From assembly GCA_023053545.1 (NCBI GenBank), contig JAKZAN010000005.1, positions 8,246,001 through 8,310,000 on the forward strand: a stretch of 64,000 nt of DNA. The letters run 5' to 3'. The position numbers and the translations under genes are program-made. This document shows positions 2,338-44,451 of this stretch, piece after piece; position 1 is the first letter of the stretch; every line of letters begins with the position of its first letter. This DNA is from Lepidurus packardi (lineage: Eukaryota > Arthropoda > Branchiopoda > Notostraca > Triopsidae). Below the pieces are notes generated by a model that worked only from the letters and a program-made list of their open reading frames with translations, was not told the DNA's origin and did not search any database.

Positions 2338-8850
<6,513 letters not shown>

Positions 8851-35975: not shown

Positions 35976-36915
35976 TTAAGCTTGCATAAGAATGCTGTCT
36001 TCTGCGGTAGGATAGGCTGTGATGTTCAACCCCAATCTATGAAGCAACACCGTTAATCGTGTGAAAGGGGATAAAAACTTATACTTACTGCCTGAAACCA
36101 GATGCAATTTCGGCGAGTTTTGAAGGGTGACACACAACAGCACATCTGCATTTATCTACGTCGAACAGGGAAGCTAAGTATTTCGGCCCCACTTTTTGTA
36201 GGTCAGCTATGGTAACTTCTGCAACTTTTCGCAAAAGAGTTCTGGAAAACGTAGGGATTTAGATTGAGTGTGTGGCTCCAAAATAACTAATCCTACTTTT
36301 TATAGGAATGAGGTATTTCTTTTAAATAAGCTAGCATAGATTGGATCACAATGTCACCGACACTTTTCTCTTTATCGATCAATTCGAAAATCAAGGAACT
36401 TTTTGCCGACTCAAGTACCGACTCTTCATACTGCAAATCACCATTCAGAAAACCGTCCTTAAACACGAATAAAATAGTCAGGTTTATTTCGAACTAAGAA
36501 CTGGATATGCAAGACAGGTACTTACTACAATGCGCTTGGCTTCTTTCCAAGCAGATACAACATGGGTTGATCTGTTCAGGGTGAAATAAAGCAGGCCTTC
36601 GTTTGTCCTATTATAAATGTAACTTCCATAAGCCAATCCTTGGCCACGAATCTGGCACCACAATGGGCCCTTAAATAGGAAATACAGTTTTTAATATTAG
36701 AAAACATGGCAATGTAGGCACTTATATACTTCGAGCTGGCAAATATACTGCAGGAGTACAAGCAGAGGAGGCAGATCAGGGTCTTGAAAATCCTTTATGG
36801 AATCTACAGCCTGTAATAAATAAGACGACTCCAAGCTTCCCATGGCAAGCGCTGCAGCTTTTACAGACGCTTCACTTAGGGGCAAAATTAGTTCGTGATC
36901 CTTTTTAACACCCAT
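35976..36915 (-). CDS. C-terminal part of an M16 metalloprotease (separated), 234+ aa
   Basis: Exons in sense order 36915-36730 (upstream limit uncertain), 36669-36526, 36457-36297, 36241-36089 and 36036-35976, all phases closing. The product reads like the last quarter of a large M16 (insulinase-type) protease: LAMGSLESSYLLQAVDS, PLLVLLQYICQLEGPLWCQIRGQGLAYGSYIY (typical M16 substrate-binding segment), and an end GLNITAYPTAEDSILMQA. It has no zinc-binding HxxEH. The frame is open upstream of Met 36915, and an acceptor-like AAAAG lies just upstream (about 36955). It most likely continues the protease at 40752-44451 across a 3.8-kb intron; a separate truncated paralogue is the alternative. Confidence 0.75.
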
Positions 36916-37538
36916 TATGATGTAGAAATCCACAAAAATACTCCTTTTCTTTTGTTTACAACTCTCGCAATGGAGTTGGCCCAATTGTCACTAGATGCTT
37001 AGTGAATTTTCGGTTTTCTCGATAATTCCGTTGCTTTTCATTCGAAAATTTCATTCGATAACTTAATTTCCCACCTGATTATTATTTCATAAAATACCAA
37101 TAAATGTCTTCTATAAAACACGGAATTTGATCGTACCGTTAATTTGTCGTGCTGTTAAATAGCGAATTAATTATCCGAATGCTTTAGACATGAAGAAAAA
37201 GAGAACCATAAAAATGTTAATGAAATTTTAAATAAAGTCGAATACAAAATATCGAGAATCGAAGGCAGTTACCTTGAACTTATTTGTTTCTACGCGTACG
37301 CAAACGTATTACAATAGAATAGTATAGTTACCTGGGCAACCAAGTCGGATATTGGAGTAATCAAGTCGATCGGATAGAACTCGAAAGTTCTCCACGTTCC
37401 TTGACAGCCGCAAGAGTGACCAGTAGTGACCTTCTAGTGTAAGAAACAAGTCAGCAATTGAACCTGCTCCGAAAAATCACTCGACATATAATGCAGATCT
37501 AATGTTAACGATGTATCATTAAACCTATCAGTCGAACC
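36916..37538. other. Interval before the doublecortin gene
   Basis: About 0.6 kb, either intergenic or part of a long M16 intron. It presumably includes the doublecortin gene promoter. No feature recognised. Confidence 0.4.
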
Positions 37539-39362
37539 ATGTCCGAATATGAATCGAAGTGGATCCACGTTTACCAGAATAACGATCCCCATTTTGCCGG
37601 CGTGCGGTTCATGATTAGTTCAAGTCAAATTAAGGACGAGGATGTGCTCCTGAGAGAAATAACGAAGAAAATTAAACCCCCATTCGGTGCCATAAGAAAA
37701 TTATACACACCCGTAAATGGAACGCGAATTCGCAAACTTGGCGAGATCAAAACGCATCGCAAATATGTTGCAGCCGGTTCCGAGAAATTTAAACAAGTTC
37801 CCGGAGGGTAATTTATTTTTATTACAATCTTTACTTCGGATATTTTACTTTTTTACTGTTTTTTTTTAAATAAAACTGTATAGGTATATGAGTATTGGCC
37901 AGGAGAATCGAGTCCTGCGCCCAAAGTTGGCGAAGGTAAGCAAATTGGTCAATCTTTTCGTTTATGGGTGCCTAATTCCCCGGTTTATACCCAGACGAGT
38001 ACAGCAGCAAAGCAATGTAATATTATCATCTTCCGGAACGGAAAACCCGAGGAATTTAAAACCATAAATCATACTGAGAATAGTAACGTTAATCAAATTC
38101 ACAGTATACTCAAATACTTGAATGGTGTATTTCCACTTAGGAAAGGAAGTTATGAGCAGTAAGTGTGCGTGCTAAAATTCCTCGATATTTTATCTCTTAA
38201 CAAATCCTTTGTTTCTTAGCCTATATACAGTTAATGGAAAATTGATTACCAATTCCGCTGAGTTGGAAAATGGTAATTCATACGTGGTAGTCACTAACTA
38301 TGAATGGTTTAAGAAAGCGTCATATGGACAAGAGAAACCCGTTCCAGTTGCTAAAAAGTCTTCCCTCTCTTTCAAGTAATTTTTATTACTGATAATATAC
38401 ACCATCTTATAAATGCTTGAATCAGACAATCCCCGTCATCAGTGCCGGAAGAAGCTGTTGCTGAGCACCAAATCGAATTCCTCGCCAGTTCTTTAGATCT
38501 AGTTTCCTCAAAAACGGAAGTACCAGAGATTTTTGAGGAAAGACCAAGACGATTATCGGGTTCCGCGCTAATGAAAACTCCCCAAAACGAACCAAGAAAC
38601 CATTCAGCAACCAGTGTTTTGATTGTTAAAAAAGAGGACGAAACAAAACGCACTGTGTCGCTACAAACGGAAAGACCTTTTCGACCTCACTCTTCCGTTA
38701 GCAACACTTTGAGTCTTATGCTGGACTTGCATTCTACCCAAGTAAAAAAACTCCCGGAAAAATGGGAGCCCGCTCAAGTCAACAACTGGCTTCTTCCTCC
38801 CGTACCTGATCCTGACCTGAAAGAGAAATCATCCCTGATTGGCCTATACAGAGCTAAAAAGTTAAGCACGAGCTTTCGTCGAGTTCCAAACGATGCACAT
38901 CATGTAACCGAAGAAATATCTCCCTCTATGAAAGAAAATATGGTCGTAAAGGAAACCAAGTCTTCGGAGCAAAAAAGCGAAGTGAATGCGGAAACACCGA
39001 TAGAGAAAGATAGAACCGAAACGCAGAAATTTGTTCCCGATCCCACTCAAGAAGCAGAAGCAGCTCGATTAATGGAATCTTTCCAATCATTTCTATCCTC
39101 TTCCATGACTACCCAAAAGAAATTCTTTAAGGAACCAGTATCTTATGAAAACACCTCAGCAGCAGTCCCCGATAAAAGAGTACATTTCAACATGGACGAC
39201 GACCCGAGTGGAATCTTTCGCGCTAAAACTAAGATCCCTAGCGGGGCATCGGAAGTACCGGATTCTCCTACGGTCATCGTAGATTTGCCCGTTGATCTGA
39301 AACCCACAGAAACCGTTCAAGTAAAAAATACTAAAATATCCAAAAAAAACATAAAAGCTTGA
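37539..39362 (+). CDS. Doublecortin-domain protein (DCDC2-like), 525 aa
   Basis: Microtubule-associated, probably ciliary or neuronal. Exons 37539-37807, 37884-37935, 37995-38158, 38220-38375 and 38426-39362 close at 525 aa. DCX domain 1 about 8-92: RFMISSSQIKDEDVLLREIT, PFGAIRKLYTPVNGTRI, KYVAAGSEKFKQVPGG. DCX domain 2 about 113-205: CNIIIFRNGKPEEF, HLYTVNGKLITNSAELENG, YVVVTNYEWFKK. The remaining 310 residues are one exon, charged and Ser/Pro/Glu-rich, without recognised domains. Two N-terminal DCX domains plus a disordered tail fit DCDC2. It sits between the two parts of the M16 protease. Confidence 0.85.
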
Positions 39363-39497
39363 ATGTTGGTCTTAGGAGGAAATATTGGCTAGTAGCCACA
39401 ACAACAGACGACAATAACTTACGGCCCGTCAAACCCCATCAACAATGATTCCCGTTCTAAAGGCTTAATAGTCCTTTATATTTAACTTTCGGAGTAT

Positions 39498-39498
<1 letters not shown>

Positions 39499-39546
<48 letters not shown>
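39499..39546. repeat. Homopolymer T48 (A48 on the minus strand)
   Basis: Uninterrupted run of 48 T. On the minus strand it is an A48 tract starting 33 nt after the stop of the intronless DHHC gene, as a retroposed poly(A) tail would be. It could also be a simple microsatellite; exact length may be affected by sequencing. Confidence 0.8.
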
Positions 39547-39550
<4 letters not shown>

Positions 39551-39579
39551 TATGTGCATGTTGCTTGCAGTTTTTACAA

Positions 39580-40452
39580 TCACTGATTTGAACAAAATAA
39601 ACTTATTCGACGACATGCTATATAAATGTAGCCATTTTCTATTTCATAAATGTTTCTAGTCAAACACCTCCACCAGGAATGCTCAATTCTTGGGATGGGG
39701 AAAAGAAAATGCCACAGACCAAACTTTCCGAACATAACACGGATATTCTTTCTGATACTGTTCGTAGACGGGACCGGTTTGCCGGAATGGAAGTCATGTG
39801 TGGTCTGGCCATGGTAGAGCAGAGTCATTTGGAATATAAACATGGCACCTGAACATAAGGCGACAGGCAGCATCGTATTTAGGACAAACAACGTAGATAA
39901 GGATTCGCACACTGCCGATTCGTCGCGCCAGCAATTTAGGAGAGCGATTGGCCATATTAGCTTCCAATAAGAAACGTTCTTCTCCACGCTGAGATCCTGA
40001 GCCACATGGAAAGCCCAATACAAACCGCTTATAGCCACATGGAACATCAAAGGAACGAAATATTTTTGGTTGCTCTCCCCGACACAAACTCCCAAGAAAA
40101 AACAATGATGGTCATGTCGGCTGATGCAAGCTCTGCACAAAGGACAATGATGTACAAGAGCAGAATCTGGCCAAGCAGTGTCACAGGTGGAGCAAAACTT
40201 GCCCTTGGCTTCATTAGCGTAACCCCATGCGACAGGTTTGTCAATAACTTCCCTTAACAAGTACTCGTTTGACACAGAAGCCGAGTATTTGCTTGGATAT
40301 ACCAAGATCCAAATCCAATTGAGGGAAACTTGCAACACAAATACGTAGAACCATGGGTCTTGGCAAAATATGGGAAATAAATCCTTTAGAGCGTAAATGG
40401 CGAAAGCACCATTGAAATAAGGCAAGGCTTTGAACAACTCAAAGTATTGCAT
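39580..40452 (-). CDS. DHHC palmitoyltransferase, intronless (ZDHHC24-like), 290 aa
   Basis: Membrane S-acyltransferase adding palmitate to cysteines of target proteins. One exon. The Cys-rich domain reads FCSTCDTAWPDSALVHHCPL then CRACISRHDHHCFFLGVCVG, with DHHC at residues 114-117 and Cys117 the acyl acceptor. Two hydrophobic segments precede it and two follow (IWPIALL region; LFVLNTMLPVALCSGAMFIF). Length and layout suit small DHHC enzymes of the ZDHHC24 type. In a window where nearly every gene has introns, its intronless form and adjacent A48 tract suggest a retrogene. The reading frame is whole. Confidence 0.85.
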   Translation of the reverse strand: MQYFELFKALPYFNGAFAIYALKDLFPIFCQDPWFYVFVLQVSLNWIWILVYPSKYSASVSNEYLLREVIDKPVAWGYANEAKGKFCSTCDTAWPDSALVHHCPLCRACISRHDHHCFFLGVCVGESNQKYFVPLMFHVAISGLYWAFHVAQDLSVEKNVSYWKLIWPIALLNCWRDESAVCESLSTLFVLNTMLPVALCSGAMFIFQMTLLYHGQTTHDFHSGKPVPSTNSIRKNIRVMFGKFGLWHFLFPIPRIEHSWWRCLTRNIYEIENGYIYIACRRISLFCSNQ

Positions 40453-40751
40453 GACTTCGGTTTAACTGCCAGTTTGAAAGAGAAAGAACCCATTTATGTC
40501 TCAATGCGCTCAGAGAAGAAGAGGAAACGGAGACTGAAGGAAAATATTGATCTATTTTGAGAAGACGAGACCGCCCGTATCTGAGAACGCATGCCTACAA
40601 CCTCGTCCCTATCGTCAAGCATTGAGAACTAAGATAACATACAAACGCTATCTGGAAAAAGGAAGTACTACACGCTAACGGTGTACGCTGTATTCCAGGA
40701 AAACACAGAAAGTGAAATTTAGGAAAAGATCCCTTCATTACAACATGATCC

Positions 40752-43700
40752 CTAAGCTTGCGAACCGAATACTCTAACCCACGGCGCATAAGGGTCCGAT
40801 AAACGTTCCACATGTGCTGCCATATGAACCGTTAAAACCTCATTTTTGATAATCAAGCTTCTCAGCAATTCCATACTCTCTATAACATTAGGAGCTTTTT
40901 CCGTTTCCAGCTGCTTTAGCATCTGATTTAGGAAGGCTTGCTGGCGCAATACACTGGCCGATTTATGATTGCTCTCTGTGAATCAGTCAAAATACTGTCA
41001 GTCTTTACTGAACACACTGTCGCTTTTCACGATAATCGTTACCTTTGCTGAAGAGCAACTCTCGCATTAAAGAAGAAATCATCTTTGGCCCTTTACGCTT
41101 AAACTGAGCCACATCGTTGATCATTTTGGTAGCCACAACTTTCACACGTTCTGCGGTAATCTTGGTATCGTACAACAATTCGTGCAGCCATTGGACGCCC
41201 TTTTCATATTTGTCTTCTTCCAACTACAAAATCAAAGTTAAGTTATGTAAAGCTAAGCCGCGTTCGTCTTGACGCAAGTTTAAGCCGACTTAAAAGTCTA
41301 CCCAAGACTTTGCGCTTAAAAGCGTTCGAGATAGGTAGACTTCGTCACACTTTGGGCTTATAAGCGTTTTCTTTAGTTAGTCGACTTAAACTTTGGAAGT
41401 TGACTTTTCGTTTTGGTCTCAAGTTAGGCAAGTCTATAGCGAGTACTATTGTCCCCAGACTTAAAGTTAACCCTATCCCTTGTTTATTTATCTCCTTTGT
41501 CGATATCGAACAATTCATATATTGTTTTTGTCTATTTTTTACAAGCACCGCCCCATGGGTAGAGCAAATGTAAGCTTTTGCTTATAAGCGTTCGTTTTGA
41601 CTCAAGACTTTCCAAGTCGACTTCTGCAAACTTTCAAAGTTTAGGCTAAAACGAACGCTTATAAGCGTAAGGCAAAGAAGTCTCGCTAGTCTAAGTTTAA
41701 GTCAAAGGTGCAAAACGGGTGCAGGTGAAAATGTCCCTGCCTAAAACGTCCCAGTTTTGGTTTTGCAGGTGGGTCAAAACGACCCGAAGTGTGAAATGAC
41801 TACTGCTTGAAGACGCATGTTAAAGTGAAGGTTTAGATTAGGTTTTGGTGCAAAATCCAAACTGGGACGTTTTGGGACTGAAACGTTTTCCCTGCACCCT
41901 GCAAAACGAACGCGGCTCTAGTTAGAGTCACGAATAAGGTTAATTACCTGCAGGAACAACACAGCTAATTGACAAAAGGCTCCGCAATGAAACCTTCTAG
42001 CTTCAACGCCAACGAAGGCTGCCGCTTTAACCGTATCTTCCGATAACTGCGCTACTACATGTTCATACGGAATTAAATCGGCTCCTCGTTGGATGGGTGA
42101 TTCTACCAATAACTCCATCAACAGTGGAAAGTAAAGCCGCAATTCACTGGGAACATCGGAGCTGTCCATCATCGTTAGCAACTAAAAAGTTAGAGGAATT
42201 ACATAACAGTATTTATAAAAAATATAAATTAGATTTACATAAACAAAACTCGTTTGAACAGAGTCGAGCTGGAAATTCATTGGGAGCTTTGAGATAGGGA
42301 ACTTAGGGTGATCACGCTGCTCATGAATTCCATCATCCACTTTGCAATTTTTCGCATTGCTGTAACGATCCATGTGGTGGAACTGAATAGAATCGATGCT
42401 TGGAACAGGAACGCGGCTAATTACCTCTGCAGGAGGCGGAGCCTTTAGAAAGAATATCATGAACGCTTGAAATTAACGTAAACAGGAATAACATGATACT
42501 TCATTTGCTTCCATGGCCTTTTCCAATTCCGTCGCTTTCTTTTTTAAGCCATCTGGTCCTAAAAGGCTTCGCTGCTCTTCGATGCGATTCTTTTCCTCAG
42601 CAGCCAAAGCTTCCATTTCAGCAGGTGAAGGTAACCCACGCGTAATGACAGCCGGCGCTTCCAAAAGGTATGTGGTAAGCAAATTACGCCAGAACGCTTC
42701 TGGCTCAGATTTAAGGCGCCGGAATTCTTCAACTTGATTGAAGCGCTTTCGGAACTAAAACGAAAGCATTAGTTAAGTACTCTCTTAAAAATATGAGGAG
42801 CAGTTTACATCGTCCTCTGTATGGCCAAACAAAACATCACCAATAGCCATAAACGCGACAGAGTCGTGTGGGTTGTTTTCCAAAGCACTTAGCTGCTCTA
42901 GAATCCTTCTGTGGATCACCGTATTGATCCTCTTCATGTCAAATTCCAGTTTTCGCAGTAGCTCGAACAGTTTAGGCTCAACTTCGGCCAACTTCGACAC
43001 AGGTACGTTCTCAAAGGTCAAGTAAACTGCCGTTGAGGCATTTTCCAGGAAAGAATACCCTACCTATTCAAAAGTGCACATTGTAAAATCTATTACAGCG
43101 TCACTTAAGCTTCAGCTTACTCTGCTGGCGTAAGCCTCGTCTTCCACAAAAGCTTTCTGCAACGGACTAACAGAGGTATCTGTCAAGTACTCCATTAGCA
43201 TCATCAGCCCACAGATCCTGAACAAAACCTCCAGGTGAACAAGTGATTTCTAATATTACTTTCTATAATTACTGGTAGTTTTCCTGGACGGCCAAAGGAC
43301 CCCTCCAAGCAACCCAAACCATGCCGTTCTCCTCATCTTCACAAGGATAAGGGACCAGCTGATCTACAGCTGCTTCCAATTGAGGAACTGGATTTTGCCA
43401 TGGCCTAACCCATTTTTCCACACTCCTCTGTTTGTATAATAAATGTTGAAAATCTCAATCAACCATGCAACATTAGCCAATTACTCGTGACACAATTTTA
43501 TCTTCTAAGGACTCGATAACTTTAAATATTTCATGGGCGGCTATTTGTCCGCTTACAATGAGCGTTAGATTTTCAACTCGGTAAAATTCCTGATGATATT
43601 TGCGCACCTAAAGGAGAAAAACGGTTGACAAATCTGTTCAACGGAAATTAAGTATCGCCATTTTACCTTTTCATTAGTTGTAGACTCCCTGAGGTTACTC

Positions 43701-44451
43701 AAAATGCCACCAGTTTCTGACTTGTAGCCACAATGGCCAGGATATAAAGCTTGAAGCATAGTTCGATGAACGCGAGATTCACCCGAGTTTTCTCTGCCTT
43801 GCATTTCACAGTAAACAACTCCGGCGTCTTCGCCATCGCCATTGATATGATGGACTTCCGTAGTGAAACCGCAATCCTAACCACAAATATTATATTAGTT
43901 GGAGGACGATTTTATACGGTCAGAGATCCTTACAGTTAAGGTTGGATGCAAAATATGATCCAAATAAATAGGGAGCAATGCCAAGAACCCTTCAGCCCCT
44001 GCAGTAGTCATAGTGTAACAGGTATGATCCGTATCTAAATAAACATTCTGCTTAGAAAATTTGCATAAATGGACAAGGGAATTTACCAGTCCAAGCATTT
44101 GTCCCTGAAGCAAGGCATCGGTTTGCTAAACGATCTAGCATGCCTTTGTAAGGGTAATCATCTGATCCCAAGAATATCAAATGTTCCAACGTGTGAGGTA
44201 GTCCATCATCATCAAAGGCTTCGGTTGCTATAGAAATATAATTATTATAAACCTGCTCATTTTTTTTAAAGTGACAGAAACAGGATGTAAAACATACCCA
44301 GACAAAAGTAACCATTGATTACAGGGCCTTCCACCTCGGCTAAAATTAACGTTAAGCCAGTTTTTTTCGACCTGTATTTGGTGACTGGTATGAGATCATT
44401 TACTTTGCATGAAACTAAAGACTCGTAGGTAAGTTCTTCAGTTATTGCCAT
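40752..44451 (-). CDS. M16 family zinc metalloprotease, N-terminal and middle part (777 codons)
   Basis: Large insulinase-type peptidase similar to the C. elegans C05D11.1 group (about 1000 aa). Thirteen exons in sense order: 44451-44298, 44227-44087, 44034-43934, 43876-43667, 43607-43485, 43427-43273, 43217-43121, 43063-42809, 42754-42500, 42442-42239, 42181-41948, 41223-41043, 40975-40752; phases close. The inverted zinc-binding motif HTLEH (63-67) is intact, and Glu156 (VVYCEMQG) is the likely third ligand. The second M16 half includes FVYLLTMMDSSDVPSELRLY. The frame stops at 40752 with FGSQA, about 230 residues short of the family; the missing end is recognisable at 35976-36915. Possible donors are GTATTC after WVR and GTTCGC after VRVF. 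Intron 41224-41947 contains a nested transposon pair. Confidence 0.85.
41256..41917. mobile_element. Non-autonomous DNA transposon (MITE), copy B, with nested element
   Basis: 662 bp in an M16 intron, in inverse orientation to copy A. Terminal inverted repeats are AGCCGCGTTCGT(C/T)TTG at both ends, flanked by a 3-bp duplication CTA (41253-41255 and 41918-41920). Interior similarity to copy A spans about 470 bp. Palindromic GCTTATAAGC-type cores followed by GTTCGTTTT occur near 41352, 41580 and 41651. A 183-bp element is inserted near the right end (41717-41899). No coding capacity. Confidence 0.82.
41717..41899. mobile_element. hAT-like MITE nested in copy B
   Basis: 183 bp with imperfect inverted ends of about 45 bp (left GGGTGCAGGTGAAAATGTCC, right complement GGGTGCAGGGAAAACGTTTC; both continue to AAAACGTCCCAGTTT). 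It is flanked by a perfect 8-bp duplication TGCAAAAC (41709-41716 and 41900-41907), characteristic of hAT elements. It interrupts the right terminal region of the host MITE, so it is the younger insertion. Confidence 0.82.

What the first reader, a model, noticed from the sequence alone, without database searches (positions are those of the whole stretch)
35976..44451. M16 protease split by two unrelated genes
The minus-strand frame at 40752-44451 has the catalytic half and most of the second half of an M16 protease but stops about 230 residues early. Exactly that missing end, with matching phases, lies 3.8 kb downstream on the same strand. A doublecortin gene (+) and an intronless DHHC gene (-) lie in between. 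Either both genes are nested in one large intron, or the protease has been broken into two transcription units.
Basis: partly seen in the sequence, partly recalled or inferred. Interest (0 to 1): 0.7.

Follow-up and report, generated by a model that had tools for sequence, protein, structure and literature searches.

The report
Two genes nested inside a protease
An animal protease gene is interrupted between its third and fourth structural quarters by two complete unrelated genes, most likely because both sit inside one long intron that is spliced out, which is unusual for this compact gene but a known kind of arrangement.

Summary
On the minus strand, 13 exons (44451-40752) encode the first 777 residues of an M16 zinc protease of the presequence-protease (M16C) type. 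Five exons (36915-35976) encode a 234-residue domain-4 tail. Both pieces are intact, have no second copy in the assembly, and are colinear with one full-length homologue (C. elegans C05D11.1, recalled from memory, not from a database). A doublecortin gene (+) and an intronless DHHC gene (-) lie between.

The best explanation is one gene with a ~3.87 kb intron holding both genes. A better phase-0 pair exists: donor 40772 (aga|GTATTC) to exon start 36900 (ttaaaaag|GATCAC). It scores near the low end of 25 training introns, and random windows do as well in 6.7% of trials: supportive, not proof. The main rival is a real fission into two genes. An in-frame ATG at 36915 and a stop at 40752 make this possible. 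No RNA evidence or related animal genome could be reached. Nested genes are well known, so this is a new member of a known kind, with modest interest unless the split proves real.

The parts
40752..44451 (-). N-part of the M16 protease, 13 exons: 44451-44298, 44227-44087, 44034-43934, 43876-43667, 43607-43485, 43427-43273, 43217-43121, 43063-42809, 42754-42500, 42442-42239, 42181-41948, 41223-41043, 40975-40752 (the last to its in-frame TAG)
   Evidence: open spliced frame, GT..AG introns of 52-70 nt plus one of 724; Pfam
35976..36915 (-). C-part (domain 4, PreP_C-like), 5 exons: 36915-36730, 36669-36526, 36457-36297, 36241-36089, 36036-35976; in the nested model its first exon begins at 36900
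36901..40772 (-). Inferred spanning intron, 3872 nt, phase 0, joining ...DPYAPWVR to DHELILPL...
   Evidence: splice scoring; not shown by RNA
37539..39362 (+). Doublecortin gene; introns 37808-37883, 38159-38219, 38376-38425
   Evidence: frames; introns, set by eye; PF03607 in the first exon; no Pfam hit in the last
39580..40452 (-). Intronless DHHC palmitoyltransferase gene, 290 aa
39499..39546 (-). 48-nt A tract (sense strand of DHHC), 33 nt after the DHHC stop

Best explanation
The two pieces are one gene, the animal's C05D11.1-type M16C protease. One intron (about 40772-36901, 3.87 kb), at the border of the exons for domains 3 and 4, has come to hold two complete genes: a doublecortin gene on the opposite strand and an intronless DHHC gene on the same strand. 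The protease pre-mRNA would run through both and be spliced in phase 0 (...DPYAPWVR|DHELILPL...) to give a protein of about 1000 residues. Shown: the open exons, the domains, the gene order, absence of a second copy and colinearity. Inferred: the spanning splice, the site of polyadenylation and the insertion history.
For: The break falls in the unaligned linker, which by my recall of the M16 fold is the domain 3/4 border. Both pieces are intact, with short introns, and no second copy was found. A phase-0 donor (40772) and phase-0 acceptor (36900) give a pair score of 8.67. 22 of 25 training introns score higher in leave-one-out, 3 of 25 the same or lower, and random windows reach it in 0.0665 of 20,000 trials. 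Intron 11 of the same gene has already been expanded to 724 nt by a repeat, with an 87%-identical copy of 470 nt at 3021-3490, so introns here tolerate insertions.
Against: Of 25 introns measured, 24 are 50-84 nt and one is 724 nt, so 3.87 kb is an outlier. The donor itself is weak: only 2 of 25 training donors score as low or lower. A chance pair this good is not rare (6.7%). The joined linker is shorter than in the recalled homologue: about 23 residues between the aligned blocks against 40. An in-frame ATG with favourable context precedes the C-part. A same-strand nested gene needs its own 3' end to be ignored by the host transcript.
Confidence: 0.68

Rival explanations
1. Real gene fission: a 777-aa protein with domains 1-3 (stop at 40752) and a separate 234-aa domain-4 protein (ATG 36915) are made from two transcription units and assemble in trans.
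For: In-frame ATG at 36915 with A at -3 and G at +4, five codons before DHEL; the N-part closes with a stop as the ninth codon after APW; the break sits at a domain border; introns in this gene are otherwise short.
Against: A usable phase-matched splice pair exists. The N-part lacks AATAAA or ATTAAA within 300 nt of its stop, although the C-part lacks them too within 210 nt, so this hardly separates the models. The fission needs several coordinated gains.
Confidence: 0.22
2. Two separate transcripts joined by trans-splicing, as reported for eri-6/eri-7 of C. elegans.
For: Same anatomy as a split gene. One gene pair elsewhere (after the PITRM1-like gene in L022) looks operon-like with an AG 9 nt before its ATG.
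Against: No SL1 match (but nothing rang in the control genomes either, so uninformative). Same strand, 3.9 kb apart: ordinary cis-splicing suffices.
Confidence: 0.04
3. Assembly error that placed the DCX-DHHC block inside the protease.
For: 344-contig assembly that also holds bacterial-looking contigs.
Against: No N in the window. No second copy of the interval or of the parts searched, in a 13.5 Mb contig. Two misjoins would be needed.
Confidence: 0.04
4. The C-part is a decaying remnant left after the gene lost its end.
For: Physical separation only.
Against: Five exons, intact frame, GTA..AG introns and a tail similar to known relatives.
Confidence: 0.02

Closest known systems
C. elegans C05D11.1 / M16C (presequence protease-like) metalloproteases
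   Same: Same domain order, HxxEH motif, similarity along both pieces
   Different: Here two unrelated genes lie between the exons for domains 3 and 4; the C. elegans sequence was recalled, not fetched, and its gene structure was not looked at
Genes nested in introns of host genes (about 6% of genes in D. melanogaster according to the abstract of PMC3786989, start of abstract seen)
   Same: Complete genes between successive exons of a host; one on the opposite strand, one intronless
   Different: Two genes in one intron, one on the same strand, in a gene most of whose other introns are 52-70 nt
eri-6/eri-7 split helicase of C. elegans (PMC3213143, listing and start of abstract only; the trans-splicing detail is recalled)
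   Same: One protein encoded in two separated pieces
   Different: From memory, eri-6/7 pieces are joined in trans; here both pieces are on one strand in order, so cis-splicing suffices

Membership tests
M16C protease (PreP / C05D11.1 type) | Inverted zinc motif HxxEH and distal glutamate | tested here: met
   HTLEH at residues 63-67 aligns to HILQH of the 2fge chain and HILEH of 6xos, and GVVYCEMQG (E156) to GVVFNEMKG of both; the zinc-ligand roles are recalled
M16C protease (PreP / C05D11.1 type) | Four M16 domains in one chain, about 1000 residues | tested here: inconclusive
   The coding matter for a full-length relative is present but in two pieces; one chain only if the inferred splice is used
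M16C protease (PreP / C05D11.1 type) | PreP-type C-terminal domain | tested here: inconclusive
   PF22516 E 5.1e-4, 20.1 bits against a cut-off of 27; C-part against own PITRM1-like paralogue E 0.054 only
Nested genes in a host intron | Host coding exons on both sides, same strand and order | tested here: met
   (rests on a recalled homologue)
Nested genes in a host intron | Phase-compatible splice sites spanning the nested genes | tested here: met
   40772/36900 phase 0; chance 0.0665; donor weak
Nested genes in a host intron | A mature transcript that joins the flanking exons | not testable with these tools
   no RNA data
Split (fissioned) gene | Independent transcript ends for each piece | not testable with these tools
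   no RNA data; ATG 36915 and TAG 40752 allow it

The most novel reading that the evidence does not exclude
The protease has truly been split at its domain 3/4 border into two genes whose products assemble in trans (or whose transcripts are trans-spliced), giving an M16C enzyme in two chains cut at an unusual place.
Probability: 0.26. Interest if true: 0.6.

Novelty: new member of a known kind. Interest (0 to 1): 0.3.

Why it matters
If nested, it is a clear case of two genes housed in one intron of a gene whose other introns are mostly under 71 nt, one of them in sense orientation, so it can be used to study how a host transcript ignores an internal poly(A) site. If split, it would test whether an M16C protease works with its fourth domain supplied in trans.

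Tried and rejected
A second compatible pair exists (donor 40782 phase 2, score 1.6; acceptor 36874, score 4.5). It is weaker and would remove WVR and DHELILPLS.

Retrocopy origin of the DHHC gene: it is intronless and followed by the only A/T run of 14 or more in the window (48 nt). But no close parent was found in the genome (30 matches: itself, then a next-ranked one of 27% identity; shorter matches reach 44% over about 50 residues or fewer). Among the 20 of 26 direct-repeat families shown none fits a target-site duplication flanking the copy. The next-ranked DHHC match (L024) also lies in one open frame, so lack of introns is not special. Left open.

A search for prokaryotic relatives (59 pattern matches, none confirmed) and relatives in viral contigs (first 223 residues: 32 pattern matches, none confirmed) found none. 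Rfam on the window gave no match. A search for SL1 RNA and nematode telomere repeats gave nothing; nothing rang in the SL1 controls, so that absence shows nothing. Poly(A) signals did not separate the models. Acceptor-like AGs just before start codons, a hint of spliced leaders, were looked for at 9 starts: an AG within 10 nt of the ATG with a positive score was among the top AGs shown at 2 of 9 (PABP-like minus-strand gene 11.1, gene after PITRM1 3.8), and at neither protease piece. Pfam on ten other open frames of the window named only trypsin, a proteasome subunit and a sub-threshold DUF. Literature searches for split M16 genes (7 papers, none with the term M16 metalloprotease) and nested genes were read as listings and starts of abstracts only. 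The listings added nothing.

Full report
Source. The window is G000:C4:8246001-8310000 of a 108.6 Mb assembly in 344 contigs. Nuclear copies of mitochondrial cox1 read with TGA as Trp; in the copy at L043, AGA stands at positions that I recall as conserved Ser and ATA at positions that I recall as conserved Met, so the organism is probably a bilaterian invertebrate (inference). The species was not identified. Some small contigs look bacterial (three cox1-like frames without stops, on C52, C214 and C43).

Observation. I rebuilt the gene by hand from the sequence and checked it by script. The N-part has 13 exons, 12 introns all GTA..AG, 777 aa. The C-part has 5 exons, 4 introns all GTA..AG, 234 aa from ATG 36915. 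Pfam names M16 and M16_C in the N-part, PreP_C (weak, under the curated cut-off) in the C-part, DHHC in the gene at 39580-40452 and DCX in the first exon of the gene at 37539-39362. Solved structures closest to the joined protein are 2fge (2.9e-21) and the mitochondrial presequence protease 6xos (6.9e-21), with best aligned stretches 12-513 and 52-494; the C-part was not reliably aligned by that search.

Colinearity. Against a C05D11.1 sequence recalled from memory, N residues 7-765 align to 8-754 (273/772 identities) and C-part residues to 795-984 (61/193). The unaligned stretch 755-794 is where the gene is interrupted. The PITRM1-like paralogue of the same genome (1025 codons in one open frame) aligns to the N-part (1.3e-21) but only marginally to the C-part (E 0.054).

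Copy number. At E up to 1, all 5 of 5 places of the C-part and 11 of 12 places of the N-part lie at this locus; the twelfth is the PITRM1-like paralogue. The 3873-bp interval matches only itself (1 of 1). DCX matches only itself (2 of 2 places, two exons). The search tool scores only its best candidates.

Splice test. 25 introns (16 protease, 3 DCX, 6 of an aldehyde dehydrogenase-like gene at 20.3-22.1 kb, named from recall, read) trained a simple weight matrix. Their borders were set by eye from open frames, not from RNA. 24 of 25 donors begin GTA; 24 lengths are 50-84 nt and one is 724. In the zone between the end of N-part homology and its stop, the best donor is 40772 (3.07; 2 of 25 training donors score as low or lower in leave-one-out). 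In the open frame before the C-part homology, the best acceptor is at 36900 (5.60; 13 of 25 score as low or lower). Both are phase 0. The pair score of 8.67 is matched or undercut by 3 of 25 real introns and reached by 6.65% of 20,000 random window pairs. The zones were set after looking at the sequence, and 16 of the 25 training introns come from this same gene, so these numbers are indicative. A first run with 19 introns gave the same choice. A stronger acceptor-like site 195 nt before ATG 36915 (7.4, 8.9) has stops after it in the C-part frame, so it cannot serve the nested model, but it could serve a separate 5' leader in the split model.

Reading. Nesting needs only insertion of DNA into an intron and ordinary splicing. 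Fission needs new ends for both halves and assembly in trans. The splice pair favours nesting; the favourable ATG at 36915, the weak donor and the outlying intron length speak for fission. I put nesting at 0.68, fission at 0.22, trans-splicing at 0.04; the novel case is the sum of the last two. A mixed case is possible: a short N-terminal isoform ending at 40752 beside the full-length one.

Known context. Nested genes are common enough to be ordinary: the abstract of PMC3786989 gives about 6% of D. melanogaster genes as intronic (start of abstract). Papers on transcriptional interference by nested genes exist (PMC3192792, PMC8467205; start of abstracts seen). The finding is therefore a new member of a known kind, of modest interest.

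Noticed in passing
39499-39546: A 48-nt A tract (sense of DHHC) 33 nt after the stop of the intronless DHHC gene, the only A/T run of 14 or more in the 64 kb window; suggests an old or parentless retrocopy, but no parent and no clear target-site duplication were found.
   Followed up: partly
41224-41947: Intron 11 of the protease is 724 nt because of a repeat; an 87%-identical inverted copy of 470 nt lies at 3021-3490, with internal inverted repeats.
   Followed up: partly
L022:2209-5286: PITRM1-like presequence protease of 1025 codons in a single open frame without introns in an animal genome (name from recall and similarity).
   Followed up: no
L022:5286-5380: Only 93 nt separate the stop of the PITRM1-like gene from an ATG that opens the next frame, with AATAAA and then tttatttcttgtag ending 9 nt before that ATG (acceptor score 3.8); looks like an operon with spliced-leader trans-splicing. 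That the next frame is a gene was not tested.
   Followed up: partly
window 3421-5198 (-) and 6396-8847 (+): Two similar RNA-binding, PABP-like genes lie head to head, a likely inverted duplication (frames; name from recall, not tested).
   Followed up: no
G000:C6:697216-698557 and other places: Many nuclear copies or fragments of mitochondrial cox1 on the large contigs, with TGA as Trp; three others on small contigs look bacterial, so the assembly seems to contain foreign DNA.
   Followed up: partly
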